Assembly: GCF_007922615.2 (NCBI RefSeq)
Contig: NZ_CP042301.2
Coordinates: 3,394,001-3,458,000, forward strand
From: Nitratireductor mangrovi
GTDB taxonomy: Bacteria > Pseudomonadota > Alphaproteobacteria > Rhizobiales > Rhizobiaceae
Length of the DNA stretch: 64,000 nt
Direction: 5' to 3'
Positions within the stretch are counted from its first letter, which is position 1. Every line of letters begins with the position of its first letter. A program made the translations under genes and the position numbers. The notes under the pieces were generated by a model. That model was given only the letters and a program-made list of their open reading frames with translations. It did no database searches and was not told the origin of the DNA. Below, in pieces: positions 17,969 through 38,326 of this stretch.

Positions 17969-17992
17969 GCGTATCCACTCCTCGATGAGGCA

Positions 17993-18016
17993 GGCGGACG
18001 GGAATCCCCGTCCGCC
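17993..18016 (-). promoter_or_regulatory. GC-rich hairpin between binding-protein gene and livG-like gene
   Basis: GGCGGACGGG and CCCGTCCGCC form a perfect ten-pair stem with a four-base loop, eight bases after the binding-protein stop. No T-run follows, so I read it as a 3'-end protector or partial attenuator that lets the binding protein be made in excess over the membrane components. Confidence 0.6.
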
Positions 18017-18024
18017 TTGCCGCT

Positions 18025-19305
18025 TCAGGCGATGGCTTCCATGGCGCCGCCGGTCGGAATGTTCGGCGCCGTCTTGTTGTCGGTGATGACGAGGTCGTAA
18101 CCTCCACCCTCCTTCAATCGCCATTGTCCGCCGACAAGCGGTGTCTTGGCGACGTTTTTCTGCGCGAAGGGCGGCAGGTTGGCGCCGTCCCAGGCAAGCG
18201 GCCCGACGATGGTGTCGAGCTTCGTCGCCGCGATCGCCTCGACGACGGCTGCCGAATCGGTCGGATCGGAGACCCGCTTCATGACGTCGGCGGCGACCTC
18301 GAACAGGGCGTGCACGAAGCCGATCGGCTGGGTCCACGGCCGTCCTGTCGCCTCCGTGAAGCCGGCGGCGAGATCGGCCGCGCTTGCGCCGGTCAGCGAC
18401 GACTTGAAGGGATGGCTCGGCGACCACCAGACCTCCGAGGAGAGGTTGTGGCCGGCGTCTCCCAGCGCTTCGACGGCCTGCGGGAAAAGGATCGCCTTGC
18501 CGATCGAGGCGACCTTCGGCGTGAAGCCCTGCTGCTTGGCCTGGTTCCAGAAGGTGGTGAAGTCCGGCGGGATCATCACCCCGGTGATCACCTCGCAGTT
18601 GGCCTGCTTGAAGGCGTTGATCTGGGCCGAAAAGTCGTCGGTCAGGTTCTGGTAGCGGCCGGGATCGGTCAGGGTGTAGCCCTGATCGGCGAGGACCGGC
18701 GGGAAGCCGACATTGGGATCGCCCCAGGCATTGCCGTCGCCATCATTGGGAAACAGCCCGCCGACCGACTTGTTGGTCTCGACCTGCGCCCACATGTTGG
18801 TGAAGACCGCGATCACGTCCTCCAGTCCCCAGAAGAAGTGGAAGGCGCTGTTGAAAGGCTGCCATGAGCCCGGATCGCCGGGATTGGCCTGCTGGCCGAT
18901 GAACCAGGGCTGCCACGGCGCCACGGTCGAGATGCAGGGGATCTCCTCCGCCTCGCAGGTGGTCGTCACCGGATTGGTGGTCTCCGGCGTCGAGGCGACA
19001 AGCATCAGGTTGATCTCGTCATCGACGATCAGTTCGCCGGCGACCTCCGCCGCGCGGTTGGGATTGGACTGGCTGTCCTTGACGATCACCTCGGCTTCGA
19101 GGCCGGCCGCGCTGGCCGCCGCCTTGAAACCTTCGATGATGAAATTGTCGGCCTCGGCGAAGGCGGCCAGCGGTCCCGTCTGCGGGCTGACATAGCCGAG
19201 GCGGACGGCCGACGCCTGCCCGATCGCCGGCATCGGCAGGCCGGCAAGGCCGGCCGCGGCGCCGCTTGCGGCGGCGGACTTCAAGAGTGTTCGTCTGCTG
19301 ATCAT
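18025..19305 (-). CDS. ABC transporter substrate-binding protein, LivK/amide-aromatic type
   Basis: This 426-residue periplasmic binding protein has an N-terminus MISRRTLLKSAAASGAAAG that is a Tat-like signal with the twin Arg pair and a hydrophobic core, ending near PAIGQA. The mature part begins VRLGYVSPQTGPLAAFAEA, the standard opening of type I periplasmic receptors of the branched-chain family. ATG 19305 has AGGGAGG upstream; the frame is open farther but only as a shadow of the reductase gene. As the first transporter gene of the operon it defines the substrate of the importer, probably an aromatic acid. Confidence 0.88.
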   Translation of the reverse strand: MISRRTLLKSAAASGAAAGLAGLPMPAIGQASAVRLGYVSPQTGPLAAFAEADNFIIEGFKAAASAAGLEAEVIVKDSQSNPNRAAEVAGELIVDDEINLMLVASTPETTNPVTTTCEAEEIPCISTVAPWQPWFIGQQANPGDPGSWQPFNSAFHFFWGLEDVIAVFTNMWAQVETNKSVGGLFPNDGDGNAWGDPNVGFPPVLADQGYTLTDPGRYQNLTDDFSAQINAFKQANCEVITGVMIPPDFTTFWNQAKQQGFTPKVASIGKAILFPQAVEALGDAGHNLSSEVWWSPSHPFKSSLTGASAADLAAGFTEATGRPWTQPIGFVHALFEVAADVMKRVSDPTDSAAVVEAIAATKLDTIVGPLAWDGANLPPFAQKNVAKTPLVGGQWRLKEGGGYDLVITDNKTAPNIPTGGAMEAIA

Positions 19306-19327
19306 TGTCGTTTCCTCCCTTTGTCGT

Positions 19328-20392
19328 TCAGTCTTGCGGACGGTCGCCGCGCCAGGCAGCGTGCAGCATCGCGCCGATCGCATCCCGTTCCACCGGGCGC
19401 GGGTTCCAGTAAGGGTTGGCGGTCGCGATCTCCGCGGCCCGATCGAGATCGGCAGCCGACAGCCCGAGTTCGCGCAACGAGGCCGGCGCGTCGACCATGC
19501 GGGCAAAGTCCCACAGGCCCACGCCTGCCGGCGCGCCGAAAATATCGGCGATCGGCGCGAGCAGGTCGGGCACAGCGCCGGCATTGTAGGCAATCGAATA
19601 AGGCAGCATGATCGCATGCGTTTCCGCGTGCGGCGTGTCGAAAGTGCCGCCGAGCGTGTGGCAGATCTTGTGATGAAGCGCCATTCCGACCGTTCCCAGC
19701 ACCGTGCCGCACAGCCAGGCGCCATAAAGCGCCGACGTGCGAGCCTCGGCATCGCTTGGGCTGCCGGTAATGACAGGAAGGGCCTGACGCATCGCGCGCA
19801 GGCCTTCGACCGCCATCAGGGTGGAGATCGGATTGCGGTCACGGGCGTAAAGCGCCTCGGCCGCGTGTGCCATGGCGTTGAGGCCGCTGGTGACACTCAT
19901 CGCCACCGGCAGGCCAAACGTCAGGTCGGGATCGTAGATGACGACTTCCGGCCGCACCCTCGGGTCGCGAAGCGTAGTCTTTGTTCCGCCTTCGGTCTGG
20001 CCGAGAATGTCGGTGACCTCCGAACCGGCATAGGTGGTCGGAATGACGATCTGCGGCAGGTCGGTACGCAGCGCGATGGCCTTGCCCAGCCCCGTGGTCG
20101 ATCCACCGCCCAGCGCGACGAGGCAGTCGGCGCCGCTTTCGCGAAGCCGGACGAGCGCCTGTTCCGTAACAGCAACCGGCGTGTGCATCGCCGCACCGGC
20201 GAAGACGCCCGCGCCGCGATCGCCCAGCGAGGCGGCCATGGCTTCGGCATCGGCCGCCTGCTGCGGCGTCGAAAGGACGAGCGCGCGGCGGCAGCCAATC
20301 CGTTCGATCCATTCGCCGACCGCGCGACTTGCTCCACGGCCGAAAACAACGGTCACGGGGTGGCCCACATAGGTGAAGTCGGGCAGCGTCAT
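19328..20392 (-). CDS. Maleylacetate reductase
   Basis: This 354-residue enzyme of the iron-alcohol-dehydrogenase superfamily matches maleylacetate reductase, which reduces maleylacetate to 3-oxoadipate with NAD(P)H. The nucleotide region reads CLVALGGGSTTGLGKAIAL, followed by IPTTYAGSEVTDILGQTEGG, characteristic of this enzyme. The histidine-rich active-site segment HHKICHTLGGTFDTPHAETHA is present. It is the enzyme directly after hydroxyquinol cleavage and fixes the pathway assignment of the operon. Its start overlaps the stop of the second dioxygenase gene (ATGA). Confidence 0.92.
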   Translation of the reverse strand: MTLPDFTYVGHPVTVVFGRGASRAVGEWIERIGCRRALVLSTPQQAADAEAMAASLGDRGAGVFAGAAMHTPVAVTEQALVRLRESGADCLVALGGGSTTGLGKAIALRTDLPQIVIPTTYAGSEVTDILGQTEGGTKTTLRDPRVRPEVVIYDPDLTFGLPVAMSVTSGLNAMAHAAEALYARDRNPISTLMAVEGLRAMRQALPVITGSPSDAEARTSALYGAWLCGTVLGTVGMALHHKICHTLGGTFDTPHAETHAIMLPYSIAYNAGAVPDLLAPIADIFGAPAGVGLWDFARMVDAPASLRELGLSAADLDRAAEIATANPYWNPRPVERDAIGAMLHAAWRGDRPQD

Positions 20393-21267
20393 GACGCGGC
20401 CCTCGCATTGCGGTCACGCGCCATGACGAGATCGAGTTCGAGCGTCCAGCGCAGCCCGTCATCGCCACTGGCGCAACCGAAACTGGCGACCAACTCCGGT
20501 TTGACGCAAAACGTCGCATCCTCGTTCAAGGCAGGATCGGCGCGGTCGAATATCTGCGTCGTGATCGTCTCGAACCCGCCGGCGCGGACCAGAAAATGCA
20601 GGTGAGCCGGCCGGCGAAGCGGATAGCCGATGCTGTCGAGCAGTTGCCCGGCGGGTCCATCGTCGGGCACCTTGTACCCCGCAGGCTTCACTGTCCGGTA
20701 GTAAAAGCGCCCGGCCGCGTCGGTGCGGAAGCTGCCGCGCAGATTGAATTCGGGCTGGAGATCGGGCTGCTGGTTTTCGTAAAGGCCCTGGCCGTTGGCC
20801 TGCCAGGTTTCGACGATGGCACCCGCGACCGGTTTGCCGTCGAGGTCGACCACCCGGCCGCTGACCTCGAGCGGCTCGCCGCGACCGTCAAGGCAGATGT
20901 CGGCGCCGAGCGGCAGCCGGGGAGCGTCGGCCCGATAGAACGGCCCACGCGGCGTGTTCGGTGTCGCGCCGCGCGGACGCTGCGAATTGATTTCCTCGAT
21001 CAGGGCGGTGATGCCGAGCAGGTCGGACAAAAGCACCCATTCCTGACGGCGTTCGTCACTCGCATGCCCGACCTCGGTCAGGAAGGTCACCGCATCGCGC
21101 CATTGCGCGGCCGTCGGGCGGACTTCGAGGATTACCTCATGCAGGTGTCGAACCACGCTCGCCAGCGCCTGTGGCAAGGCTCCGTCGCCCGCGCGCGAAA
21201 GCCGCCGCCCGACGATGTCGGACGCGTTGCGCGCATTCAGCGTTTGCGGGCTTCCGGACGCCGGCAT
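20389..21267 (-). CDS. Intradiol ring-cleavage dioxygenase, hydroxyquinol 1,2-dioxygenase type (copy 2)
   Basis: This 292-residue paralogue of the dioxygenase at the far end of the same operon has all four predicted iron ligands: Tyr in WQANGQGLY, Tyr in AGYKVPDDGP and two His in RPAHLHF. It differs in the substrate-facing stretch around the second Tyr (K-V-P in place of P-I-P) and lacks most of the C-terminal extension, hinting at a different ring substituent. I start at ATG 21267, after GGGGAG; a TTG at 21294 is the outer limit. It is the first gene of the ten-gene operon and diverges from the LysR gene 89 bases away. Confidence 0.88.
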   Translation of the reverse strand: MPASGSPQTLNARNASDIVGRRLSRAGDGALPQALASVVRHLHEVILEVRPTAAQWRDAVTFLTEVGHASDERRQEWVLLSDLLGITALIEEINSQRPRGATPNTPRGPFYRADAPRLPLGADICLDGRGEPLEVSGRVVDLDGKPVAGAIVETWQANGQGLYENQQPDLQPEFNLRGSFRTDAAGRFYYRTVKPAGYKVPDDGPAGQLLDSIGYPLRRPAHLHFLVRAGGFETITTQIFDRADPALNEDATFCVKPELVASFGCASGDDGLRWTLELDLVMARDRNARAAS

Positions 21268-21343
21268 GCCTCTCCCCGAGCTTGACCTCGACAAAGGCTA
21301 GCAGGCGCTTGACGCGCGGTTGATGATTTTCCGGCCAATTAAT

Positions 21344-22307: not shown

Positions 22308-22704
22308 GGCCGGCGCCTCATCTCGCCCGCGGGCTCGTCGCGGGCCCCGCCGACGCCCGTTCGCAGACCGACGATGCGGCGACGCATTGCCCCTCTCCTG
22401 CTAACAAGTGTTTCGCTTTGACAGGCGATGACGCCCGATGTAGCGTAATCGGGCCGCGTGAGTAGAAGCGCACCAATCCTTGCCGCTCCTTGAGCGGGGG
22501 AGATAATTGCTCACTTGTTGGAACACCAACGGGTTGGGCTGCGCTCTCGAAACGGACTTCCCAATCCGCTGGATTTCAACCGGGGCTTTCGGCCCCCGGC
22601 GACCATGGCCCTAAGGGAATGTGCACGCACATCGTCCGGGCGATGGCTTCTTGTTGGCGCTTGTTCAACCGGTCGTCACCACGGCCGGGTGCTGGGAGGA
22701 GAAG
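22308..22704 (+). other. Non-coding interval before the NitT/TauT-type ABC operon
   Basis: The 397 bases carry no convincing gene. They begin with short dyads after the LysR stop (TGAGGC-CGGC-GCCTCA at 22305-22320), contain a strong promoter-like pair near 22420-22446, and leave a leader of about 250 bases before the binding-protein start at 22705. I see no recognisable riboswitch. Confidence 0.6.
22418..22446 (+). promoter_or_regulatory. Sigma-70-like promoter
   Basis: TTGACA (22418-22423), a 17-base spacer and TAGCGT (22441-22446) form a good housekeeping promoter facing the ABC operon at 22705. A perfect -35 at ideal spacing is uncommon by chance in this GC-rich sequence. The long leader after it could hold further control. 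Confidence 0.5.
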
Positions 22705-23727: not shown

Positions 23728-23752
23728 CCGGGAGCGGCAATGCCGCTCCCGG
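23728..23752 (+). promoter_or_regulatory. GC-rich hairpin between binding-protein and permease genes
   Basis: CCGGGAGCGG and CCGCTCCCGG form a perfect ten-pair stem with loop CAATG, ten bases after the binding-protein stop and without a T-run. An ATG at 23740 lies in the loop, which argues against using it as the permease start. It probably sets the ratio of binding protein to membrane parts. Confidence 0.6.
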
Positions 23753-23778
23753 TCCGTTCGCGCGAAAAGGTACCAACC

Positions 23779-24591
23779 ATGGCACAAATCGAAATGGCGC
23801 CGGCCGTTGACCGGAGATGGACCAACTGGGCATGGCATGCCGAAAACATCGCCTCGCCCGTACTTTTCACCGTCGGCCTGTTCCTGATCTGGGAAGTGGC
23901 GTGCCGGTTGTTCGACATTCCCGAGACGATCCTGCCGAAGGCATCCTCGACGCTCTACGCGCTGTGGGAATTCCGCGCGGTGATCCTCGACAACACCATC
24001 GTGACGCTGTGGACGACGCTGGTCGGCTTCGCGCTCGCCATCATCATCGGCCTGCTGCTCGGCGTTGCCGTCGGCTGGCACCGCGCGGTCTATTCCGCGG
24101 TCTATCCGGCGCTGATCGCGTTCAACTCGATACCCAAGGTCGCCGTCGTTCCGATCCTGATCCTGTGGTTCGGCCTGGGCACGGTTCCGGCGATCCTCAC
24201 CGCCTTCCTGATCTCGTTCTTCCCGATCGTGGTGAACGTGGCGACAGGACTGGCAACCGTCGAGCCGGAGCTGGAGGATGTGCTGCGCGCGCTCGGCGCC
24301 AAGAAGCTGGTCGTCATGACCAAGGTCGGTATCCCGCGCTCGCTGCCGCATTTCTTCGGCTCGCTCAAGGTCGCCATCACCCTTGCCTTCATCGGCGCGG
24401 TCGTCGCGGAGACGGCCGGTGCCAGCCGCGGGCTCGGAAAGCTGATGCTCGACGCGCAGGCCGCCTTCCAGGTGCCGATCGTGTTTGCCGCGCTGCTGGT
24501 GCTCTCGGTGCTCGGCATTCTGCTTTACGCGGTCACGGCGATGATCGAACAGCGGTTTACCGGCTGGGCGCACCGCTCGCAGAACCATTGA
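23779..24591 (+). CDS. ABC transporter permease, SsuC/TauC type
   Basis: This inner-membrane permease of about 270 residues has six or so hydrophobic segments and the family EAA loop around ALGAKKLVVMTKVGIPRSLPHFFGSL. The stretch FNSIPKVAVVPILILWFGLG is typical of the SsuC/TauC group. I start at ATG 23779 (AAAAGG nine bases before) because the alternative ATG at 23740 sits in the loop of a stable hairpin. It works with the adjacent ATPase as a dimeric channel. Confidence 0.88.
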   Translation: MAQIEMAPAVDRRWTNWAWHAENIASPVLFTVGLFLIWEVACRLFDIPETILPKASSTLYALWEFRAVILDNTIVTLWTTLVGFALAIIIGLLLGVAVGWHRAVYSAVYPALIAFNSIPKVAVVPILILWFGLGTVPAILTAFLISFFPIVVNVATGLATVEPELEDVLRALGAKKLVVMTKVGIPRSLPHFFGSLKVAITLAFIGAVVAETAGASRGLGKLMLDAQAAFQVPIVFAALLVLSVLGILLYAVTAMIEQRFTGWAHRSQNH

Positions 24592-25966: not shown

Positions 25967-26893
25967 ATGATTATCGACATTAGCTGCTACCCCACCAAGC
26001 TGGTCGACCTGGCATGGCGGCATGATGGCGATCCGTTCACCGGCGAGCGTCTTTTGAAGATGATGGACGGGCCGTTCTGGGTGAACGGCAAGCCGCGCCG
26101 CATCGACAAGGCCTTCATCCAGCCGCCGCAGGGCAACACCATCTACACGCATGGCCACGGCGACCTGGAAGGCAAGGAAGCCATCCGCGACTACATGGCC
26201 TACACCGTCGAACTGGTCCAGAAGTACCCCGACCGGTTCCTCGGCTGCTTCGTCTACAATCCCCGCTACGGCACCCAGAACGGCGCCGAGGAGATCGAGC
26301 ACCACGCCAAGGAATACGGCTTCAAGATGGTGCAGCTGCAGGCCAACATGCACGCCTACCGGCCGGACCGGGCGCTCGACTGGCTGCGGCCGGCCATGCG
26401 GAAATGCGCCGAGTTGGGCCTGCTGGTGAAGGTGCATACCGGCGACGGACCATACTCGATCCCCACCGAGTTCTATCCGATCATCCGCGAGTTTCCCGAG
26501 GTCAATTTCATCCTCGGCCACTTCGGCGTGCAGACAGGCGGTGTCTACTGCTTCGAGCCGTTCCAGATGGCACTCGACGCACCCAACGTCTACGCCGAGT
26601 CGGGCTGGTGCCTGCAGTCGCGCATCGTCGAGTTCGCCAAGGAACTGCCGAAGGAGAAGATCCTGTTCGGTACCGACACGCCGCCCAACGAGCCCGGCAT
26701 GTGGCTGCGCCTGCTCGAGGTTCTGTGCCACGAGCCGCCTCAGGGTCTGAACCTCGATGAGGACACGCTGGAAGACTATTTCGGCAACAATGTCGCGCGC
26801 ATGATCGGCCTCGATCCGACGCCGCCGCCGCGCACCGTCGAGGAAGCCAAGGCCCGCCTTACGGGCGACAGCCCCGCACTCGCAACGGCCTGA
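25967..26893 (+). CDS. Amidohydrolase-2 family protein lacking the HxH metal motif (copy 1)
   Basis: This 308-residue TIM-barrel protein of the amidohydrolase-2/ACMSD-like decarboxylase family is closely similar along its whole length to the next gene. The later metal-site residues are kept: His in KVHTGDG, His in LGHFG and Asp in GTDTPP. The N-terminal HxH is lost: residues 4-9 read DISCYP where the paralogue has DTHLHP, so His6 is Ser and His8 is Tyr. It may bind metal differently, act without it, or serve as a partner of the paralogue. ATG 25967 follows GGAG by six bases; the longer frame upstream has no support. Confidence 0.85.
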   Translation: MIIDISCYPTKLVDLAWRHDGDPFTGERLLKMMDGPFWVNGKPRRIDKAFIQPPQGNTIYTHGHGDLEGKEAIRDYMAYTVELVQKYPDRFLGCFVYNPRYGTQNGAEEIEHHAKEYGFKMVQLQANMHAYRPDRALDWLRPAMRKCAELGLLVKVHTGDGPYSIPTEFYPIIREFPEVNFILGHFGVQTGGVYCFEPFQMALDAPNVYAESGWCLQSRIVEFAKELPKEKILFGTDTPPNEPGMWLRLLEVLCHEPPQGLNLDEDTLEDYFGNNVARMIGLDPTPPPRTVEEAKARLTGDSPALATA

Positions 26894-26934
26894 GGCCGTC
26901 AGGCGATCTCTCTACCGAATTCCGGAGATCAACG

Positions 26935-27876
26935 ATGATTATCGACACCCACCTGCATCCGACCAACCTGGTCGACGAGGCCTGGCGGCACACCGGCACG
27001 CCGTTCACCGGCGAGCGCATGCTCAAGCTCATGGACGGCCCGTACTGGATCAACGGCAAGCCGCGCCGCATCGACATGGGCTTCATCCAGCCGCCGCCCG
27101 GCAACACCGGCTACCGCGACGGCAACCGCATGGGCCGCGAGGGCATTCGCGACTACATGGCCTACATCGCCGAGCTGTGCCAGAAATATCCGGACCGCTT
27201 CATCGGCAACTTCAACTACAACCCGCGCTGGGGTCCGGAAAACGGCGCCGCGGAGCTGGAATTCCACGTCAAGGAATACGGCTTCAAGATGCTGAAGCTG
27301 CATGCCAACATGCATGGCTACCGGCCCGACCGGGCCTTGGAGTGGCTGCGCCCGGCGATGAAGAAATGCGCCGAGCTCGGCGTGGTCGTGCTCATCCACA
27401 CCGGCGACGGGCCCTACACGATCCCGACCATGTTCTATCCGATCATCCGGGAGTTCCCGATGGTCAACTTCATCATCGGCCATTTCGGCATCCAGACCGG
27501 CGGCAACTATTCCTTCGAATCCTTCTGGATGGCGATGGACACGCCCAACGTCTATTGCGAGAGCGGCTGGTGCTTCCAGTCGCGCATCGTCGAGTTCGCC
27601 AAGGAACTGCCGAAGGACAAGATCGTCTTCGGCACCGACTCGCCGCCGAACGAGCCGGGCATGTGGCTGCGCGAACTCGAAGTCCTGTGCCACGAACCGC
27701 CACAGGGCCTCGGCCTGTCGGAAGACGACCTCGAAGGTTACCTCGGCAACAACATCGCCAAGCTGGTCGGCATCGACCCCACCCCTCCGCCTCGCACCAT
27801 GGATGAGGCGAAGGCCCGCCTGACGGACACCTATGCCGGTGTCAAGGGCGGCGCGGGCCAGGCTGTTCCCGCCTGA
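26935..27876 (+). CDS. Amidohydrolase-2 family metal-dependent hydrolase/decarboxylase (copy 2)
   Basis: This 313-residue member of the amidohydrolase-2 family includes aromatic-acid decarboxylases (gamma-resorcylate, 5-carboxyvanillate, ACMS) and ring-opening hydrolases among its relatives. The complete metal site is visible: HLH at residues 6-8, His in LIHTGDG, His in IGHFG and Asp in GTDSPP. It probably decarboxylates or hydrolyses an intermediate handled with the UbiD/UbiX pair that follows. Forty-one bases separate it from copy 1, with CCGGAG as ribosome site. The exact reaction cannot be assigned from sequence. Confidence 0.88.
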   Translation: MIIDTHLHPTNLVDEAWRHTGTPFTGERMLKLMDGPYWINGKPRRIDMGFIQPPPGNTGYRDGNRMGREGIRDYMAYIAELCQKYPDRFIGNFNYNPRWGPENGAAELEFHVKEYGFKMLKLHANMHGYRPDRALEWLRPAMKKCAELGVVVLIHTGDGPYTIPTMFYPIIREFPMVNFIIGHFGIQTGGNYSFESFWMAMDTPNVYCESGWCFQSRIVEFAKELPKDKIVFGTDSPPNEPGMWLRELEVLCHEPPQGLGLSEDDLEGYLGNNIAKLVGIDPTPPPRTMDEAKARLTDTYAGVKGGAGQAVPA

Positions 27877-27884
27877 TGCCCGAT

Positions 27885-27963: not shown

Positions 27964-29343
27964 ATGGACAAGCGGGCCCCTCACGACAGCCAGGATGTGC
28001 GCCATTTCCTCGCGGCCTATGCGGCCGCCCATCCCGAGGACGTGCTGACCGTCGAGGAGCCGGTCTCCGACGACCAGGACGTGTCAGCGTTCATCTGGGC
28101 TCTGAAGGAACAGAACCGATCGCCGCTGCTGCATTTCCGCAAGGTCGGCGGCATCGGCGTCGAAGTCGTCTCCAACATCTTCGGGTCGCGCCAGCGCATC
28201 GCACGCATGTTCGGGGTCGAGGAAGGGCAGCTGCACGAGGCTTACCAGGCACGGTCCAGGGAGGAAGTGAAACCGGTCGAGCTACGCGACGGCCCGGTGA
28301 CCGAACTGGTCACCCAGGACGGCATCGACCTCTCGACCCTGCCGATGCTCAAGCATTTCGAGACCGACCGGACCAAATACATCACCAGCGGCGTCATCAT
28401 CGCCGAGCACCCCGAGACCGGCGGCGGCAATCTCAGCTACCACCGGGCAATGATTCATTCGAAGAACGAGCTCGCCACCAGCCTGCATTCGCGGGGGCAT
28501 CTGTGGCGGCTTCTGAACATGGCCAAGGAACGCGGCGAGCCGCTCAAGGTCGCCATGGTCATCGGCGCCCACCCGCTGTTCATGATCGCCGCCTCGGCAC
28601 GGCTGGCCTTTGGCGCCGACGAGCGCGACGTGGCCGGCGGTCTGCTCGGCGAACCGCTCAAGGTCGTGCGCACGCCGAAGCACGGCATCCGCGTGCCCGC
28701 CTTCGCCGAGATCGTGCTCGAGGGCGTGATCGATCCCGAGGCACATGTCGAGGAGGGGCCGTTTGGCGAGTTCACCGGCTATTCGTCCGACCGCTCGACC
28801 AACAATCTGTTCCGCGTCGAGACCGTCATGCGGCGCAGCGATGCCATGCTGGTCTCCGTCGCCGGCGGCAATTCCGCCGAGCATCTCAATCTAGGCCGCG
28901 TGCCGCGCGAGGCCGAGATGGTGGAAAAGCTCAAGCAGCGTTTCCCGAGCGTGACAGCGGTCCACTATCCGGCCTCGGGCACCCATTTCCACGCCTATGT
29001 GGCGCTCAACCAGATGCGGCCCGGCGAGGCGCGCCAGGTCATGCTCGGCCTGCTCGGCTGGGACGCCTATCTGAAGACCGTGATCGCGGTCGACGCCGAT
29101 GTCGATGTCACGCGCGATTCCGACGTCTTGTGGGCGCTGTCGACCCATTTCCAGCCGCACCGCGACGTCGTCATCATCGAGGGCCTGCCGGGCAACGCCC
29201 TCGATCCCTCGGCCTCGGGCATCGGCACCACGTCGCGCATGGGGCTCGACGCCACGCGCGGTCCCGATTTCCACGGTACGCTGGCCAAAATCAGCGACGA
29301 GGCCTTCGCGCGCGCCCGCGCCATCCTTGGCCGAGTGGGCTAA
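27964..29343 (+). CDS. UbiD family decarboxylase (prenyl-FMN dependent)
   Basis: This 459-residue UbiD-type enzyme would remove or add a carboxyl group on an aromatic or unsaturated acid with the prenylated flavin made by UbiX. Family landmarks are SYHRAMIHSKNELATSLHS, GAHPLFMIAASA, the active-site segment EEGPFGEFTGYSSDR with its glutamates, and SGIGTTSRMGLDATR near the C-terminus. I start at ATG 27964; the frame is open to 27883, but that region contains the hairpin. A ubiX-like gene follows 17 bases later, so the pair is self-sufficient. The probable substrate is a hydroxybenzoate-type acid. Confidence 0.92.
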   Translation: MDKRAPHDSQDVRHFLAAYAAAHPEDVLTVEEPVSDDQDVSAFIWALKEQNRSPLLHFRKVGGIGVEVVSNIFGSRQRIARMFGVEEGQLHEAYQARSREEVKPVELRDGPVTELVTQDGIDLSTLPMLKHFETDRTKYITSGVIIAEHPETGGGNLSYHRAMIHSKNELATSLHSRGHLWRLLNMAKERGEPLKVAMVIGAHPLFMIAASARLAFGADERDVAGGLLGEPLKVVRTPKHGIRVPAFAEIVLEGVIDPEAHVEEGPFGEFTGYSSDRSTNNLFRVETVMRRSDAMLVSVAGGNSAEHLNLGRVPREAEMVEKLKQRFPSVTAVHYPASGTHFHAYVALNQMRPGEARQVMLGLLGWDAYLKTVIAVDADVDVTRDSDVLWALSTHFQPHRDVVIIEGLPGNALDPSASGIGTTSRMGLDATRGPDFHGTLAKISDEAFARARAILGRVG

Positions 29344-29360: not shown

Positions 29361-29972
29361 ATGCGACCGCTCGATCAGCAGAGGAAGCGCCTGATCATCG
29401 GCATCAGCGGCGCTTCCGGCGCGATCTACGGGGTGCGCCTGCTCAAGATCCTGCGCGAACTCGACATCGAAACCCACCTCGTCGTCTCGCGCGCCGCGCA
29501 GATCACGCTCGCCATGGAAACCGACATGAAGATCGCCGACGTCGAGGCGCTGGCGACCGTCGTGCATTCCAACAAGGACATCGGCGCGGCCTGTTCGAGC
29601 GGCTCTTTCCGCACCCTCGGCATGATCGTTGCGCCCTGCTCGGTGAAGACCCTGTCGGAAATCGCTTCAGGCGTGACTTCGAGCCTGTTGTCGCGCGCCG
29701 CCGACGTGACGCTCAAGGAGCGCCGCCGCCTGGTCTTGATGCTGCGCGAGACGCCACTGCATCTCGGTCATATCCGCGCCATGGCGCAGGCAACGGAGGC
29801 CGGCGCCATCATCTGTCCGCCGGTGCCGGCCTTCTACGCCAGGCCGGAAACGCTCGAAGACATGGTCGACCACACGGTCGGCCGCGTGCTCGACCTGTTC
29901 GACATCGACGCCGGCCTGGTCAGGCGCTGGGGCGGGCTCAAGGGCGCCGCGAAGCAGGCCGCCGAGGGATAG
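29361..29972 (+). CDS. ubiX: UbiX family flavin prenyltransferase
   Basis: This 203-residue flavin prenyltransferase links dimethylallyl phosphate to FMN, producing the cofactor of UbiD-type decarboxylases. Motifs are IIGISGASGAIYGVRLL near the N-terminus, SSGSFRTLGMIVAPCS in the middle, and LKERRRLVLMLRETPLH with the usual catalytic Arg/Lys environment. It is preceded by GGAGGTGGCG directly before the ATG. It belongs to the catabolic UbiD of the same operon; whether it also serves ubiquinone synthesis is unknown. Confidence 0.92.
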   Translation: MRPLDQQRKRLIIGISGASGAIYGVRLLKILRELDIETHLVVSRAAQITLAMETDMKIADVEALATVVHSNKDIGAACSSGSFRTLGMIVAPCSVKTLSEIASGVTSSLLSRAADVTLKERRRLVLMLRETPLHLGHIRAMAQATEAGAIICPPVPAFYARPETLEDMVDHTVGRVLDLFDIDAGLVRRWGGLKGAAKQAAEG

Positions 29973-30117: not shown

Positions 30118-31149
30118 TCAGCCGTGCGCGAGGCAGCCCTCGAGCATCGTCTCGATCGCCGCGCGATCGATGTTGCGGCCGATGAAGACCAGCTTCGAAT
30201 AGGGCCGGTCCTTGCCCCACGGATGGTCGGCACGGAAATCCATCAGCTTGTGCACGGCCTGCAGAACGAAGAAGCGGCTGTCGTCCTCGATCGCAAGGAT
30301 GCCCTTGGTGCGGAAGATGTCGTCGCCGTTCTTCGCCAGATAGTCGGCGAGCGTCGTCTCCAGCCTGGCACGGTCGAAGGGCCTCTCGAAGACGAAGGAT
30401 TCCGACGTCACCGTGGCATCATGGGAGTGGTGGTGATGATGGTGGTGGTGGTCGTGCTCGTCGAGATTCAGCAGCTTGGCGCGCTCCGCGACGTAGGAAG
30501 GCTGGAAGCCGCTGATGCCGAGGATGTTGGAGAGGTCGACCTTGCCGTAGCTCGACCGCAGGATATCGGCGGTCTCGTTGAGCTTGCGCAGATTGGTCTC
30601 CAGCACCGCCACATCGTCCTCACCGACGAGGTCGACCTTGTTGATGACGATACGGTCGGCGGCAACGATCTGGTCGACGGCCTGGTTGTCGCGACCGTCC
30701 AGCAGCGGGTCATCGACATGCTGGGCGATATGCTTGGCATCGACCATGGTGACGATCGCGTCGAGTTCGACCTTGCCGGCCACCTCGTTGTCGATGAAGA
30801 AGCTGGTCGCCACCGGCGTCGGGTCGGCAAGCCCGCTGGTCTCGACCAGGATGTGGTCGAACTTGTCCTTGCGCGCCAGAAGCTTCTGCAGCACTTCGAC
30901 GAGATCGTTGCGCACGTCGACGAAGCAGCAGATGCAGCCGTTCTGCATCTGGAAGATCTCCTCCTCCGAGGCGATCACCAGGTCGGAATCGACGTCGATC
31001 TCGCCGAACTCGTTCTCGATCACCGCGATGCGGTGACCGTGGCGCTCGGTCAGGATGTAGTTGAGCAGCGTCGTCTTGCCGGCGCCGAGGAAGCCGGTGA
31101 GGATGGTGACGGGCACCTTGCCGTCGCCGCTGGTCTGGATATCGGCCAT
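30118..31149 (-). CDS. COG0523 (CobW-like) GTP-dependent metallochaperone
   Basis: This 343-residue G3E GTPase has Walker [13 protein letters not shown] at residues 19-30, the metal-binding CxCC motif in NGCICC (Cys72, 74, 75), the guanine motif NKVD and a run of eight His flanked by acidic residues near 235. Proteins of this family hand zinc, cobalt or iron to target enzymes. It starts two bases after the molybdenum-hydroxylase large-subunit gene, so it is the last gene of that operon. The client may be the zinc/iron amidohydrolase of the divergent operon; this is inference. Alternatively it is a general zinc-stress gene. Confidence 0.92.
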
Positions 31150-31151
31150 GC

Positions 31152-33454
31152 TCAGGCCTCCTTCTTTTGCGCGCGCAGCGCGTCGAGGATGTTTTCTGGC
31201 GTGATCGGATAGTGGCGGAAGCGCACCCCGATCGCGTCGTGGATGGCGTTGGCGATCGCCGGCCCGATGGCGATGATCGGGTCTTCGCCGACACCCTTGG
31301 CGCCCCAGGGACCGCCCGGATCGGGCGCGGTCTCCAGGATGATGGTGCGGATCGGCGGCATGTCCATCGACAGCGGCATCTTGTAGTCGACGAAACTCGG
31401 ATTGAGCGATCGGCCGTTGGTGAGATCGATGACATAGTCCTCGCTCAGCGTGTGGCCGATGCCCTGCTGGATACCGCCCTCGATCTGGCCGGCGGCCGCC
31501 ACCGGGTGGATCACCTTGCCGATCTCGTGCACGGGGATCACCTGCAGGACCGCGACCTCGCCGGTCTCGGTATCGACCTCGACCTCGGTGAAATGCGCCC
31601 CGAAGGAATAGGACTTGGTCGGCGTATAGGTGCCGACGCCGACGAGCTGGATCGCCGGCATGCCGCGTTGCGGCGCGACCGCCTCCCTGAGCGACATCGA
31701 CCGGTTGGAGCCGTCAAGACGCAGGATGACGCCGTCGACGATGGTCAGCTCCTCGAGCGAGGAGTCGAGCATGGGCGCCGCATGCGCCAGGATCTGGCGC
31801 CGCACGTCGGCGGCCGCGAATTGCGCGGCGCGCCCGCCCATGTAGGTGGTGTGGCTGGCAAAGGCGCCGATGTCCCAGGGCACGACGTCGGTGTCGCCCT
31901 GCACTACCGAGATGTCCTCGAACGGCACGCCGAGTTCCTCGGCAACGATCTGCGACAGCGCGGTGTGGGCTCCGGTGCCGAGGCCAGCGGTGCCGGTCAG
32001 CAGCGTGACGGTGCCGTCCTCGTTCATCTTCACGATGGCGTTGCCCTGCTCCTTGATGCCGGGGTAGGCGCTGGAGCCGTGCATCTCGCAGCCGATGCCC
32101 CAGCCGCGGCGCTTGACGCCATTGCCCTTGGGGGCCTTCCGAACCGCGGCCCAGTCGCTCTCCTCCATGCCGCGGCGGATGCAGTCCTCGAGCCCGTGGC
32201 CGACGATCGGGTGACCCGACGGGGCGATGTCGCCTTCGCGGACGGCATTCTTCAGCTTGAACTCGGCCGGGTCGAAACCCAGCCGTTCGGCCGCCTCGTC
32301 GACCTGCAGATCGATGGCGAAATAGGTCTGCACCACGCCGTAGCCGCGGAAGGCGCCGGCGATCGGCGTGTTGGTGTAGATGCAGCGACCTTCGAGATGC
32401 ACGTTCTCGCAGCGGTAGAGCGACGTCATCGCCGCGGTGCCGACATTGGTCACGCCCGGTCCGTGGGAGCCATAGGCACCGGAATTGAAGACGATGCGCG
32501 CCTGCCGCGCGGTGATGCGCCCGTCCTTGGTGAAGCCCTGCTTGAGCCAGATCTTGCCGGGATGACGCGAGCGGCCGCCGAGGAAGGTTTCCTTGCGCGT
32601 GAACTCCATGCGCACCGGCCGCGCCGTTTCCCTCGCCAGCAGGGCCGACAGGAACTCGTGCTGGAACAGGTCCTGCTTGGCGCCGAAACCGCCGCCCATA
32701 TGGTCGACGATGACGCGCACCTTGTTGAGCGGCACGCCGAGCACCTCGGCGAGCGCGCCGCGGACCATGAAGGCGGTCTGGGTCGAGCTCCAGATGGTGA
32801 GCTTGCCGTTGCCGTCCCACTGGGTGACGCAGACATTCGGCTCCATGTAGGCCGGTGTCGGCCGGCCGAGCTCGTATTCGCCCTCGAGCACCAGGTCGGC
32901 CTCGGCGAAGCCCTTCTCGACGTCGCCGCGCTCGACCACGACAGGGGCGAGCACGTTGTTCTTTTCCAGGCCGTTGTCGTGGATTGCCGGCGCATCCGGC
33001 TTCAGCGCATCCTCGACGGTGAAGACGGCCGGCAGCGGCTCATATTCGATCTCGATCAGGCCGAGCGCCTCCTCGGCGATCTCCTCGCTGATGGCGGCGA
33101 CAGCGGCAACGCCCTCGCCCCAGTAGCGGACCCGGTCGTCGAGAATGTACTGGTCCTTGGTCACCGAGGCCGAGCGCGGGTGCGGCGAACCGTAATGCAG
33201 CACGCGCGGCACGTTCTCATGCGTGAGCACCGCCTTGACGCCCTTCAGCGCCAGCGCCTTCGAGGTGTCGATCGACTTGATGCGGGCATGGGCGATATCG
33301 CTGCGCTTGATCTTGCCGTGCAGCATGCCGGGCAGGATGATGTCGCCGGCATAAAGCGCGGTCCCGGTCACCTTCTCCAGTGTATCGGAGCGCTTGACGC
33401 TCTTGCCGACGACCGAGAAGGACTGCTTCGCGGCGGCGGGGTGGTCGTGGATGG

Positions 33455-33458
<4 letters not shown>
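31152..33458 (-). CDS. Molybdenum hydroxylase large (molybdopterin) subunit, xanthine-dehydrogenase family
   Basis: This 768-residue catalytic subunit hydroxylates an N-heterocycle or aldehyde carbon with water. Cofactor-contacting stretches are [43 protein letters not shown] and, at the C-terminus, [12 protein letters not shown] with the general-base Glu. The ATG at 33458 overlaps the small-subunit stop (ATGA); the longer open frame is a shadow. With separate FAD and 2Fe-2S genes it has the three-subunit layout seen in CO dehydrogenase, nicotinate and caffeine dehydrogenases. No XdhC-type cofactor chaperone gene is present in the operon. Context with a deaminase-like amidohydrolase and a nucleoside importer favours a purine/pyrimidine-like substrate. 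Confidence 0.9.
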
Positions 33459-33936
<478 letters not shown>

Positions 33937-33940
<4 letters not shown>

Positions 33941-34800
33941 TGAATGCCTCCCATGGCCTGGCCGATGGCGCGGCGCGTCAACACGCCGACCATCTCGCGG
34001 CGGTAGTCGGCGCTGGCGCGCACATTGCTGATCGGGGTGGATTCGGCCATCGCCGCGTCGGCGATCGCCGCGATGGCGGACAGGTCGAGGGCGCGGCCGC
34101 GCGACAGCGCCTCGGCGTTGCGGGCGCGGATCGGCGTCGGCGCCACCGCGCCGAGCGCGATGCGGATTTCGCGGCAGGTATCGCCGTCGCTATCGAGGCT
34201 GACGGCGACGCCGACGGTGGCGAGCTCCATCGCCTTGCGGCGGCCGTGCTTGATGTAGGCACGGCCGCTCGCCGGCTGCGGCGGCGGTACCGAAATACCG
34301 GTGACGATATCGCCGGGCGCAAGCACGGTACGGCCCGGCCCGGTGAAGAACTCCTCGATCGCGATCGTGCGCTCACCGGTGCGGTTGTAGACCTCGAGCG
34401 ACGCGCCGTCGGCGACCAGCGGCGGGATGGTGTCGGCCGAAGGTGAGGCGCGGCAGACATTGCCGACCACCGTCGCCCGGTTGCGCACCTGGATCGAGCC
34501 GAGCAGGCTGACGGCGGTGCGCAGGTTCGGGTAATGCTCGATCACCGGCGCCCAGGTCTCGATCTGGCGCGCCGTCACAAGGGCGCCGAAGCGGAGCCCC
34601 TCGCTCGCGTCGAAGCTCAGATCGCCCAGCCCCGGCAGCTTCTTGATGTCGACCACGTGAAGCGGCTTGCGCAGCTCTTCCTTGATCTCGACCAGAAGAT
34701 CGGTTCCGCCAGCGATGATGCTGGCTTGCGTGCCGAGTTCGGCCAGGAGCGCCGAAGCCTCGTCGAGACTTTGCGGCTGGTGATATTCGAAGCGTTTCAT
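33937..34800 (-). CDS. Molybdenum hydroxylase FAD-binding (medium) subunit
   Basis: This 287-residue FAD subunit has the first FAD loop in ASIIAGGTDLLVEIK (near residue 32) and the second in RNRATVVGNVCRASPSAD (near 107), both standard for the medium subunit, followed by the CO-dehydrogenase flavoprotein C-terminal domain. It hands electrons to NAD+ or a quinone carrier. It is the first structural gene of the operon, 51 bases after the GntR gene. Confidence 0.93.
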
Positions 34801-35987: not shown

Positions 35988-37289
35988 ATGCTGGCAAACG
36001 GGACCGTCCCGCGCCCTCGTCAAGGCAAACCATACGTTCTCACAGGCGGCCTGGCCCTGTTGCCGGACGGTAGGGAGCGTCGTGCCGACATCATCGTCGG
36101 CGTCGACGGGCGCATCGCACAGGTCGGCGGCGCCGCCAACACAGGCGGCGATCTCGACCGCATCGACATCTCCGGACGGCTGGTCACCCCCGGCCTTGTC
36201 GACATGCACCAGCATCTCGACAAGACCGGCGTGTTGCGCTTCACGCCCAACCCGTCCGGCACCCTGCAGGGCGCGCGTGAAGCCTTCGCCAGATACGCCC
36301 GCACCGCCGGGCCTGAAGACATCCTGCGCCGTGCGGCGCGCACCATGGCGCGCTGCCTGTCGCGCGGCACCACCGCGATCCGCAGCCACATCAATGTCGA
36401 CAAGGATGCCGGCTTCAACGGCATCGAGTCGCTGGCACAGTTGCGTTCCGAGTGGACCGACCGGCTGACGCTGCAGCTTGTCGCCTTCATGACCCCGCAT
36501 CCGGGTCAGGACCTCGACTGGCTGATGCAAAATATCGACCGCGCGGTGCAAAAGGCCGACGCGGTCGGCGGCACGCCGGCAGTCAGCGAAGACCCGTTCC
36601 GCTACATGGACATCCTGTTCGGCGCCGCCGAAAAGCACGGCAAGCCGGTCGATCTGCATCTCGATGAGCATCTCGACACGCGGCGGCCGCTGTTCGACGC
36701 CGTTTTCGACCGGGTGCGCAAGTTCAACATGCAGGGCCGCACCGTGCTCAGCCACGCCTCGGTGCTGAGCGCCCTGCCGCGCGATGCCTATGAGCGTATC
36801 CGCGACCAGATTCTCGAGCTCGACATCGGGGTGGTCACCCTGCCGGCGGCCAATCTCTACCTGCAGGGCCGTGACGCCGACACGCTGCCGCCGCGCGGCC
36901 TGACGCGCGTTGCCGACCTTGTGCGCTCCGGCGTGCCGATCGCGACCGCCTCCGACAACATCCAGGACCCGTTCGTGCCGACCGGCTCCGGCGACATGCT
37001 CGAGATCGGACGCTGGACGCTGCTTGCCGGGCATCTGAAGGGCGACGAACTGAAGGCCGTCCACACGATGATGACCACGATCCCGGCGCGCCTGATGGGG
37101 CTCGGGGGCGGCTACGGGCTGCGCGAAGGCGCGCGCGCCGATTTCCTCGTCACCGACTGTCCGGACGTCGACACGCTGGTTGCCGGCGGGGCCGACGCGA
37201 TGACCGTCTTCGCCGGCGGCCGGCCGGTTTTCGAGACATCCGCCATGGCGGCCGCGAAGGAGGCGCGCCGGCACAAGGCGGAGTGCTGA
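35988..37289 (+). CDS. Cytosine-deaminase-like amidohydrolase
   Basis: This 433-residue metal-dependent hydrolase of the CodA/AtzC branch has HQH of MHQHLDK at residues 74-76, His in HLDEHLD, His in LSHASVLS and the Asp of TASDNIQDPFVPTGSGDM, all matching cytosine deaminase and isopropylammelide hydrolase patterns. It is predicted to remove an amine from a pyrimidine-, purine- or triazine-like ring. ATG 35988 follows GGGAG by six bases. As first gene of the importer operon and divergent from a ring hydroxylase, it belongs to one catabolic route for an N-heterocycle. Confidence 0.85.
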   Translation: MLANGTVPRPRQGKPYVLTGGLALLPDGRERRADIIVGVDGRIAQVGGAANTGGDLDRIDISGRLVTPGLVDMHQHLDKTGVLRFTPNPSGTLQGAREAFARYARTAGPEDILRRAARTMARCLSRGTTAIRSHINVDKDAGFNGIESLAQLRSEWTDRLTLQLVAFMTPHPGQDLDWLMQNIDRAVQKADAVGGTPAVSEDPFRYMDILFGAAEKHGKPVDLHLDEHLDTRRPLFDAVFDRVRKFNMQGRTVLSHASVLSALPRDAYERIRDQILELDIGVVTLPAANLYLQGRDADTLPPRGLTRVADLVRSGVPIATASDNIQDPFVPTGSGDMLEIGRWTLLAGHLKGDELKAVHTMMTTIPARLMGLGGGYGLREGARADFLVTDCPDVDTLVAGGADAMTVFAGGRPVFETSAMAAAKEARRHKAEC

Positions 37290-37342: not shown

Positions 37343-38326
37343 ATGACGATCACCAGAAGAGCATATCTCGCCGGGCTCGCGGCCGTGGCCGCAGGAACCC
37401 TTGCGTTTACCACACCGGCCTTCGCCGACACCTTCAAGATGGGCCTGCTTGTGCCCGGCAGCGTCTCCGAAGAGGGCTGGAACCGCATCGGCTACAACGC
37501 GCTCAAGGGCGTGGAAAAGGAGCTCGGCGCGCAGGTCTCCTACGTCGAGCTGCAGCAGAACCCGGCCTCGTTCGAAAAGGCCTTCCGCGACTATGCCAGC
37601 CAGGGCTTCAACGTGATCCTCGGCCACGGCTTCGAATTCCAGGACGCCGCGCTCGACGTTGCGGCCGACTATCCCGATACCGTGTTCCTGATCTCGTCGA
37701 GCTACATCCACGAGGGCAATGTGATCGGCCTCAACACCGATACCAGCCAGCCCTTCTACCTGATGGGTTATGTCGCCGCGCGCATGGGCAAGAAGGCCGG
37801 GCTCGTCGGCGGCATGGAAATCCCGCCGATCCAGCAGGCCTTCGAAGGCTTCAAGAACGGCGCCCGCAGCGTCGATCCCGACTTCCCGATCAGCGAGGCC
37901 TATATCGGCAACTTCACCGACACCACCGCGGCCAAGGAAGCGAGCCTCAGCATGATCTCGCAAGGCGCCGACTTCCTGGTGCCCAACGCCTCGGGTGCCA
38001 CGGTCGGCGGCTATCAGGCGATCGCCGAATCCGGCGGTGACGTGAAGACCTTCAGCATCTTCTCGGACTTCACCGAGGTTGCCCCGAACAACATCCTCGG
38101 CCTCTATGTCGCCGACTACGCCCAGGGCGTGGTCCGTGTCGTGAAGTCGATCCAGGACGGCGAGGTGCCGAGCTGGAACATCGAGTTCGGCCTCAAGGAC
38201 GCGGACGTCATCAAGTTCTCCTTCCGCGACGACGTCGAAAACGGCGTGCCTGCCGACATCCGCGAGGAGGTCGAGGACGTGAAGGCGAAGATCGCCGCAG
38301 GCGAGATCAAGACCCGCAACCGCTAG
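37343..38326 (+). CDS. BMP family ABC substrate-binding protein (nucleoside type)
   Basis: This 327-residue periplasmic protein of the basic-membrane-protein/PnrA family typically binds purine nucleosides or related bases. The N-terminus MTITRRAYLAGLAAVAAG is a signal with a twin Arg pair and hydrophobic core, cut near AFA-DTF. The mature start FKMGLLVPGSVSEEGWNRIGYNAL is the family hallmark. ATG 37343 follows GGGAGGAG; earlier in-frame codons lack signal features. Two permeases and a double ATPase follow. Confidence 0.9.
   Translation: MTITRRAYLAGLAAVAAGTLAFTTPAFADTFKMGLLVPGSVSEEGWNRIGYNALKGVEKELGAQVSYVELQQNPASFEKAFRDYASQGFNVILGHGFEFQDAALDVAADYPDTVFLISSSYIHEGNVIGLNTDTSQPFYLMGYVAARMGKKAGLVGGMEIPPIQQAFEGFKNGARSVDPDFPISEAYIGNFTDTTAAKEASLSMISQGADFLVPNASGATVGGYQAIAESGGDVKTFSIFSDFTEVAPNNILGLYVADYAQGVVRVVKSIQDGEVPSWNIEFGLKDADVIKFSFRDDVENGVPADIREEVEDVKAKIAAGEIKTRNR

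What the first reader, a model, noticed from the sequence alone, without database searches (positions are those of the whole stretch)
25967..27876. Amidohydrolase paralogue that lost its HxH metal motif, beside an intact copy
The two neighbouring genes encode proteins similar along their whole length. Copy 2 has the full metal set (HLH at 6-8, HTGDG, GHFG, GTDSPP). Copy 1 keeps the last three but reads DISCYP in place of DTHLHP, so both first histidines are gone while the fold is otherwise well conserved. That selective loss, with no other decay, suggests a changed role: a structural or regulatory partner of copy 2, or a new chemistry. Placed next to UbiD/UbiX and an NMT1-type importer, this may be an undescribed aromatic-acid decarboxylation module.
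Basis: partly seen in the sequence, partly recalled or inferred. Interest (0 to 1): 0.72.

Follow-up and report, generated by a model that had tools for sequence, protein, structure and literature searches.

The report
Paired amidohydrolases under xanthine-type riboswitch
Two neighbouring sister enzymes, one of which swapped its metal-binding site for a different but equally guarded pocket, sit in a gene module that some bacteria appear to use to turn pterin-like (vitamin-derived) rings into xanthine, which may identify missing genes of a little-known breakdown pathway.

Summary
Copy 1 (AH1, 25967-26893) reads DISCYP where copy 2 (AH2, 26935-27876) reads DTHLHP. In 81 of 81 loci, window included, AH1 has D-x-S-C-Y-P-T and the adjacent AH2 DTHLHPT. 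The copies come from one old duplication, and both are under purifying selection. AH1's pocket was re-tooled: fixed changes on barrel strands 1, 3, 4 and 5 include a new Lys, and its pocket is as invariant as AH2's. Around the pair lie UbiD, UbiX, CobW, a molybdenum hydroxylase and nucleobase-type importers. One of two deaminase families tracks the pair closely in each of two bacterial families. A covarying RNA of the xanthine (NMT1) riboswitch type precedes AH1 in 32 of 81 loci. It passed Rfam's cut-off in three Sinorhizobium/Ensifer loci but not in the window. I conclude that this is a module making xanthine from a pteridine-like compound. AH1/AH2 most likely do a ring-opening/contraction step, probably as a heteromer, and UbiD decarboxylates the product. 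Substrate and assembly are inferred; nothing was assayed.

The parts
22455..22517 (+). Xanthine (NMT1) riboswitch-like element ahead of the importer operon
   Evidence: RF03054 20.5 bits, below the gathering score of 36; R2 model 24.9 bits, E 3.7e-4; elements at the same place in L004, L005 and L006
22705..23718 (+). NMT1/THI5-type ABC substrate-binding protein
   Evidence: PF09084, 7.2e-40
23740..24591 (+). ABC permease of the NMT1-type importer
   Evidence: PF00528
24644..25564 (+). ABC ATPase of the NMT1-type importer
   Evidence: PF00005
25767..25839 (+). Xanthine (NMT1) riboswitch-like element, 127 nt ahead of AH1
   Evidence: RF03054 20.7 bits, below cut-off 36; same-place homologues in L007-L009 score 41.4-43.4, above cut-off; covariation
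25967..26893 (+). AH1: Amidohydro_2 paralogue without HxH (DISCYP)
26935..27876 (+). AH2: Amidohydro_2 protein with the full metal set (DTHLHP, HTGDG, GHFG, GTDSPP)
27964..29343 (+). UbiD-family prFMN decarboxylase (an earlier start at 27883 is possible)
   Evidence: PF01977/PF20696/PF20695; TIGR00148 over cut-off; Arg of HSRG and both Glu of EGPFGE in 77 of 77 homologues
29361..29972 (+). UbiX flavin prenyltransferase
   Evidence: PF02441; TIGR00421 and NF004685 over cut-off
30118..31149 (-). CobW-family GTPase (putative metallochaperone)
   Evidence: PF02492/PF07683; below the NCBIfam cut-offs of named CobW-type equivalogs
31152..33458 (-). Molybdenum hydroxylase large subunit (xanthine dehydrogenase family, below the XdhA cut-offs)
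33455..33922 (-). 2Fe-2S subunit of the Mo hydroxylase
   Evidence: gene family 4; the homologue is annotated (2Fe-2S)-binding protein
33937..34800 (-). FAD subunit of the Mo hydroxylase
   Evidence: PF00941/PF03450
34852..35613 (-). GntR/FCD regulator
35988..37289 (+). Cytosine-deaminase-like amidohydrolase (c13), co-occurring with AH1/AH2 in the window's family
37346..38326 (+). BMP-type ABC substrate-binding protein
   Evidence: PF02608
38399..41988 (+). Two permeases and the ATPase of the BMP-type importer
   Evidence: PF02653 twice, PF00005

Best explanation
AH1 and AH2 are the two halves of one catabolic activity, in a module that imports a pteridine- or purine-like ring and turns it into xanthine. 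Shown: one duplication, strict adjacency in the loci examined, opposite motifs fixed in all of them, an equally invariant pocket in both copies, a nearly constant core (UbiD, UbiX, CobW) with exchangeable deaminase, Mo hydroxylase and importer, and a xanthine-riboswitch-type RNA ahead of AH1 in a large minority of loci. Inferred: the deaminase and Mo hydroxylase produce 2,4,6,7-tetrahydroxypteridine; AH2, a metal enzyme, hydrolyses an amide of its diketo-pyrazine ring; AH1, whose pocket lost the HxH ligands and gained a conserved Lys (Arg in one subclade), binds the same kind of molecule and either completes the ring contraction to xanthine-8-carboxylate or finishes AH2's active site in a heteromer; UbiD with UbiX-made cofactor decarboxylates xanthine-8-carboxylate to xanthine; xanthine dehydrogenase and the urate pathway, encoded elsewhere in the genome, take over; xanthine shuts the operon off through the riboswitch. 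Rough odds: catabolism leading to xanthine 0.8; pteridine substrate 0.6; AH1-AH2 heteromer 0.6; this exact ring-contraction step 0.35.
Against: No substrate, product or complex was measured. After the uncharacterised 3CJP, AH1's closest folds are mostly non-oxidative decarboxylases, so AH2 could be a decarboxylase instead. The window's two RNA elements score below Rfam's cut-off; so do nine other loci scanned with Rfam in which my own model R2 finds an element (L031, L064, L078; L011, L030, L065 in 114; L004, L006, L010 in 116). 49 of 81 loci had no element found. The wider element set comes from models built here, so inclusion is partly iterative; in the larger set the number of doubly changed pairs is no higher than in shuffles (196 of 500), although the number of doubly changed cells is. 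c9 is absent from the window's genome at E<=1e-60; c13, used there, is only cytosine-deaminase-like. Eight AH-negative genomes hold 49-54% identical c9 homologues. Co-occurrence was not corrected for relatedness. XDH and urate genes were not compared with AH-negative genomes. The tetrahydroxypteridine to xanthine-8-carboxylate reaction and its EC number are recalled, not looked up.
Confidence: 0.42

Rival explanations
1. AH2 is a non-oxidative decarboxylase of a pteridine or pyrimidine carboxylate, like isoorotate decarboxylase or ACMSD, and AH1 is its non-catalytic or trans-completing subunit; UbiD removes a second carboxylate.
Confidence: 0.25
2. AH1 is an independent enzyme with its own metal-free or differently metalated chemistry on an adjacent intermediate, not a subunit of AH2.
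For: Its pocket is as invariant as AH2's, with a new Lys and Gln pair and retained His, His, Asp. A subclade (9 of 9 sequences) has diverged further, with Ala, His, Arg and Ser/Thr at key sites.
Against: Strict adjacency, overlap in 23 of 80 loci, similar length and parallel divergence (distance correlation 0.90 over 77 loci, against 0.81 and 0.75 with UbiD) fit a complex at least as well.
Confidence: 0.22
3. The module degrades an oxidised or unusual purine (8-oxoguanine-like) rather than a pteridine; the deaminases act on purines, and UbiD handles a purine carboxylate from an unknown source.
For: c9 is also related to 8-oxoguanine deaminases (3HPA, 296 bits; 7WW2, 288 bits). The riboswitch class is tied to purine oxidation, and the PRK12393 family to which c9 belongs is named among its associated genes.
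Against: c9 is clearly nearer to 2PAJ (449 bits against 296 and 288). Ordinary purines need neither UbiD nor an amidohydrolase pair to reach xanthine (general knowledge).
Confidence: 0.2
4. AH1 is a decaying or strain-specific copy with no role.
For: None found.
Against: 81 of 81 loci keep the motif; dN/dS 0.013-0.146 in 12 pairs; pocket invariance.
Confidence: 0.01

Closest known systems
ACMSD-type Amidohydro_2 enzymes (PF04909: ACMSD, 2,6-dihydroxybenzoate, isoorotate and 5-carboxyvanillate decarboxylases, LigJ)
   Same: Pfam family and (beta/alpha)8 fold; AH2 keeps the five expected side chains; AH1 keeps the His of strands 5 and 6 and the Asp of strand 8
   Different: 10-21% identity to the structures listed; AH1 has Ser-x-Tyr for His-x-His, Gln for Lys and for His on strand 4, and Lys for Leu on strand 5; constant adjacent pair
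Xanthine (NMT1) riboswitch, RF03054
   Same: Same conserved core and helices ahead of AH1; above cut-off in L007, L008 and L009
   Different: Window copies are 20.7 and 20.5 bits against a cut-off of 36. UbiD is not mentioned in PMC7373994 (0 occurrences); its three amidohydrolase mentions, seen in passages, name HutI- and PRK12393-type enzymes, not an Amidohydro_2 pair
Isoxanthopterin / pterin-6-carboxylate deaminase (2PAJ by recall; Hall 2010, cited in PMC5270733)
   Same: c9, near the pair in 33 of 81 loci, is closest to 2PAJ among solved structures
   Different: c9 was not found in the window's genome; no activity was tested
Tetrahydroxypteridine cycloisomerase, EC 5.5.1.3 (recalled: Alcaligenes work of the 1960s, no gene assigned as far as I recall)
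   Same: The predicted reaction would link the deaminase and Mo hydroxylase to a UbiD decarboxylation giving xanthine
   Different: No activity evidence here; link by inference only
Lumichrome catabolic cluster of Nocardioides simplex (PMC12746152, passages read)
   Same: Hydrolases, a xanthine-oxidase-like hydroxylase and a heterocycle decarboxylase act on a fused N-heterocycle
   Different: Its decarboxylase is thiamin-dependent, and UbiD has 0 occurrences in the text

Membership tests
Amidohydro_2 (PF04909), for AH2 | Pfam match over gathering score | tested here: met
   170.7 bits, cut-off 26.4
Amidohydro_2 (PF04909), for AH2 | HxH on strand 1, His on strands 5 and 6, Asp on strand 8 | tested here: met
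   H6 H8 H155 H183 D235 in 79 of 79 full-length AH2; strands read from the AH1 model, AH2 was not modelled
Amidohydro_2 (PF04909), for AH1 | Pfam match over gathering score | tested here: met
   133 bits over residues 74-282; the first 73 residues lie outside the best match
Amidohydro_2 (PF04909), for AH1 | HxH on strand 1 | tested here: not met
   S-C-Y in 81 of 81
Amidohydro_2 (PF04909), for AH1 | Metal bound in the active site | not testable with these tools
   His, His and Asp remain; needs metal analysis
Xanthine riboswitch RF03054, window elements | Score over the curated gathering score of 36 | tested here: not met
   20.7 and 20.5 bits
Xanthine riboswitch RF03054, L007/L008/L009 elements | Score over the curated gathering score of 36 | tested here: met
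   43.4, 41.4, 41.5 bits
Xanthine riboswitch RF03054, set ahead of AH1 | Helices kept by compensatory changes | tested here: met
   17 rows: 97.9% of cells paired, 22 double-change cells, each 0 of 500 shuffles as high; pair-type count 193 of 500. 37 distinct rows: 94.7%, 51 cells, each 0 of 500; doubly changed pairs 196 of 500. Both alignments were fitted to the model
Xanthine riboswitch RF03054 | Ligand binding and OFF control | not testable with these tools
   needs in-line probing or a reporter
UbiD decarboxylase | UbiD domains and conserved Arg/Glu/Glu | tested here: met
   Three Pfam domains; Arg of HSRG and both Glu of EGPFGE in 77 of 77; that these are the catalytic residues is recalled
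Isoxanthopterin deaminase, for c9 | Closest to 2PAJ with the Thr pair | tested here: met
   449 against 296 and 288 bits; APTT in 31 of 33, two rows not matched by the search expression; the meaning of the Thr pair is recalled
Isoxanthopterin deaminase, for c9 | Deamination of isoxanthopterin or pterin-6-carboxylate | not testable with these tools
   needs assay
Tetrahydroxypteridine cycloisomerase | Conversion to xanthine-8-carboxylate | not testable with these tools
   needs assay

The most novel reading that the evidence does not exclude
AH1:AH2 is a two-site heteromeric tetrahydroxypteridine cycloisomerase: AH2's metal site hydrolyses the pyrazine-ring amide, and AH1's metal-less, Lys-bearing site closes the imidazole ring with loss of water. 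It would be the first gene-assigned enzyme of its kind (as far as I recall) and a case in which a duplicated amidohydrolase split hydration and dehydration between an ordinary and a re-tooled barrel. UbiD then acts as xanthine-8-carboxylate decarboxylase, and xanthine feeds back through the riboswitch.
Probability: 0.22. Interest if true: 0.9.

Novelty: new variant of a known kind. Interest (0 to 1): 0.76.

Why it matters
If right, it supplies genes for the missing middle of bacterial pterin (folate breakdown) catabolism, gives a likely home to an enzyme reaction described long ago without a gene (recalled), adds a UbiD substrate class, and shows a pseudoenzyme-like paralogue whose altered pocket is as constrained as the parent's. 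AH1 and a second copy are found on pSymB of the laboratory strain Sinorhizobium meliloti 1021 (two places in that record), and the whole cluster is annotated on a plasmid of S. meliloti RCAM1115, so the steps can be tested with ordinary gene deletions and purified proteins. It also extends the xanthine riboswitch to a gene set that I did not find named in the paper that defined the class (passages).

Tried and rejected
Resorcylate/hydroxyquinol reading: the intradiol dioxygenase and Fe-ADH genes on the other strand (19328-21294) suggested an aromatic-acid route. They are not among the gene families widely shared by the 81 loci, so this was set aside. Picolinate/quinolinate-type routes were considered from memory and dropped, because the shared importers and deaminases are of nucleobase type.

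Strain-specific change or assembly error: rejected. AH2 outside Proteobacteria: HxH homologues named Nocardia, Streptomyces, Humibacter and Caldilineales appear (120 of 294 listed), but I could not read their neighbourhoods. A try through L020 (record named Enemella) returned places with the same coordinates as the Pseudomonadota genomes, so it says nothing about Actinomycetes and suggests that the L020 record is misnamed.

Rfam at gathering score: no match in the 64 kb window or in 7 loci; of 7 further loci only L007 matched, and of 7 more only L008 and L009; the other 59 of 80 loci were not scanned with Rfam. Among 11 AH-positive genomes RF03054 passed in 1, which by coordinates is L007's genome. 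Wider finds rest on models R1 and R2 built here.

Tree: quick method; 24 of 69 inner branches open; three rows (L039_AH1, P0109, P0111) carried no motif label because of an untrimmed start or an odd motif, and were not counted in the groups.

Papers: ten searches. No held paper has UbiD with pterin and amidohydrolase; of the three papers found, tetrahydroxypteridine and xanthine-8-carboxylate occur in one, a urine metabolomics table; six guessed S. meliloti locus tags gave none; two searches gave nothing usable for metal-free or inactive amidohydrolase partners. The library lacks most subscription journals. The two key deaminase papers are not held, so their content is recalled or taken from PMC5270733 (passages) and PMC9513972 (parts 1-2 of 5 read).

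Last protein search (c13, 120 of 1169 listed): names shown were cytosine deaminase, deaminase or amidohydrolase family protein; no pterin deaminase label among those listed.
Full report
1. The observation. Their proteins are 74% identical over 299 residues. AH1 reads MIIDISCYPT, AH2 MIIDTHLHPT; the three later motifs are kept in both. Both match PF04909, but AH1's best match starts only at residue 74. The one-contig 4.86 Mb genome holds no other close copy.

2. Conservation. Of the 120 homologues of AH1 listed out of 333, 98 have S-x-[YF] (94 S-C-Y), 9 A-C-H, 2 A-C-Y, 10 HxH and 1 is cut short. A genome-contig scan gave 297 relatives, of which the best 80 loci were kept. All 80 hold AH1 and AH2 side by side. 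With the window this makes 81; AH1 has D-x-SCYPT in 81 of 81 and AH2 DTHLHPT in 81 of 81; in L061 and L073 the AH2 gene runs off the contig. The gap between the genes is -4 to 60 nt, and they overlap in 23 of 80 loci. dN/dS in 12 pairs was 0.013-0.146 for AH1 and 0.005-0.101 for AH2. Whole-genome searches gave the pair in 11 of 297 genomes of the window's family, 4 of 398 of the phylum and 52 of 249 of family f66, each with both copies (the own genome is counted in the first two); in G881 the second copy is split between two contigs.

3. One duplication. A quick tree of 72 sequences with the motif columns removed puts AH1 (S-x-Y and SACH forms) in one clade (SH-aLRT 100) and proteobacterial AH2 in another (99), with HxH homologues outside both; the AH1 stem is longer, 0.38 against 0.19. 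The root is set on an assumed outgroup.

5. Neighbourhood. Genes called by my own codon-usage script in 81 loci were clustered. Counts: UbiD 77, CobW 73, UbiX 69, some Mo hydroxylase subunit 73 (two large-subunit types, 43 and 30 loci, never both), NCS2 xanthine-type permease 60, BMP importer 17, NMT1 importer 8, any importer 74. Two deaminase types never share a locus: c9 in 33, c13 in 18. Some loci are cut by contig ends, so absences are upper bounds. Genome-wide, c9 at E<=1e-200 is in 49 of 52 AH-positive and 0 of 197 AH-negative genomes of f66; the three exceptions are G809, G901 and G905. In the window's family c13 at 68% identity or more is in 11 of 11 AH-positive and 0 of 286 AH-negative genomes; at 1e-80, 11 of 11 and 2 of 286, the two being 45-46% identical. 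The stricter limits were chosen after seeing the gap in scores, and the Fisher p-values ignore relatedness. c9 is missing from those 11 genomes at E<=1e-60, apart from 34% matches in two.

6. What the deaminases say. c9's best solved relative by sequence and by fold is 2PAJ, titled an amidohydrolase from a Sargasso Sea sample. PMC5270733 (passages read) says that Sargasso Sea amidohydrolases deaminate isoxanthopterin and pterin-6-carboxylate. That 2PAJ is that protein is my recollection; 3HPA is also from the Sargasso Sea. c9 has APTT as 2PAJ does, where 3HPA and 7WW2 have APCS. PMC9513972 (parts 1-2 of 5 read) describes pterin deaminases of the Arad3529 type; whether c13 belongs to that family was not tested.

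7. The RNA. Rfam finds a xanthine (NMT1) riboswitch 127-140 nt ahead of AH1 in L007, L008 and L009, above the curated score. The same element lies at the same place in the window and in L004, L005, L006 and L010, though the window's scores only 20.7 bits. A model from these 8 searched over 82 sources (1.68 Mb) gave 18 matches with E<=0.07, all ahead of AH1. A second model gave 40 matches at E<=1 over 81 sources: 32 lie 93-307 nt ahead of AH1 in 32 different loci, 4 ahead of the NMT1 importer (window 22456-22517, L004, L005, L006), 1 between UbiX and CobW of L039, and 3 weak ones (E 0.07-0.7) elsewhere. Nine of these loci had been scanned with Rfam and had not passed its cut-off. Helix 1 swaps C-G for G-C, and helix 3 swaps C-G for U-A; 0 of 500 shuffles reach the number of doubly changed cells, but the count of doubly changed pairs is reached by 6 of 500 in the smaller set and 196 of 500 in the larger. 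The alignments were fitted to the model, so pairing percentages lean towards it; sliding the partners destroys the signal. The class binds xanthine and urate, turns genes off, and is said to control steps earlier than xanthine (PMC7373994, abstract and passages). The ligand's C8 is the only solvent-accessible position (PMC8266621, passages), so xanthine-8-carboxylate might bind too, which is untested.

8. Synthesis. A module probably switched off by xanthine, importing nucleobase-like rings, with a pterin-type deaminase, a Mo hydroxylase, an amidohydrolase pair and a UbiD decarboxylase, matches the old Alcaligenes route as I recall it: isoxanthopterin to violapterin to tetrahydroxypteridine to xanthine-8-carboxylate to xanthine. 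The amidohydrolase pair would be the ring contraction (an amide hydrolysis followed by a dehydrating closure) and UbiD the last decarboxylation. All 11 AH-positive genomes tested also carry xanthine dehydrogenase and hydroxyisourate hydrolase genes, which is consistent but was not compared with AH-negative genomes. Each chemical step is inference.

9. Novelty. I found no held paper joining these genes, but the library is partial. The fold, UbiD and riboswitch are known kinds; the fixed pair with a re-tooled partner, and its place in such a pathway, appear new. Hence new variant of a known kind, interest 0.76.

Noticed in passing
window 22455-22517: A second xanthine-riboswitch-like element stands ahead of the NMT1 importer genes; same place in L004, L005 and L006.
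   Followed up: partly
P0056, P0057, P0058, P0060, P0063, P0065-P0068: A metagenomic AH1 subclade reads DSACHPT and has Ser/Thr in place of the last metal Asp and Arg in place of the new Lys: a second round of re-tooling.
   Followed up: partly
window 16023-21294: Minus-strand run with a FAD-monooxygenase-like gene, ABC genes, an Fe-type alcohol dehydrogenase and an intradiol dioxygenase; looks like a separate hydroxyquinol-type route (only the last two were checked by Pfam).
   Followed up: no
L020: Record named Enemella evansiae carries a proteobacterial version of the cluster, and its phylum search returned places known from Pseudomonadota genomes: probably misnamed or contaminated.
   Followed up: partly
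G000:C1:2750175-2751380: The window's genome has a second, 59% identical homologue of the c13 deaminase with one stop inside the matched stretch.
   Followed up: no
L039 1750-1823: An extra riboswitch-like match between UbiX and CobW in Herminiimonas, where the cluster is split into two blocks.
   Followed up: no
loci: Two Mo-hydroxylase large-subunit types (43 and 30 of 81 loci, never both) and three importer types replace one another around the AH1-AH2-UbiD-UbiX-CobW core.
   Followed up: partly
P0148: A metagenomic protein with an HxH start and an AH1-like second half; could be a gene-conversion product or an assembly chimera.
   Followed up: no
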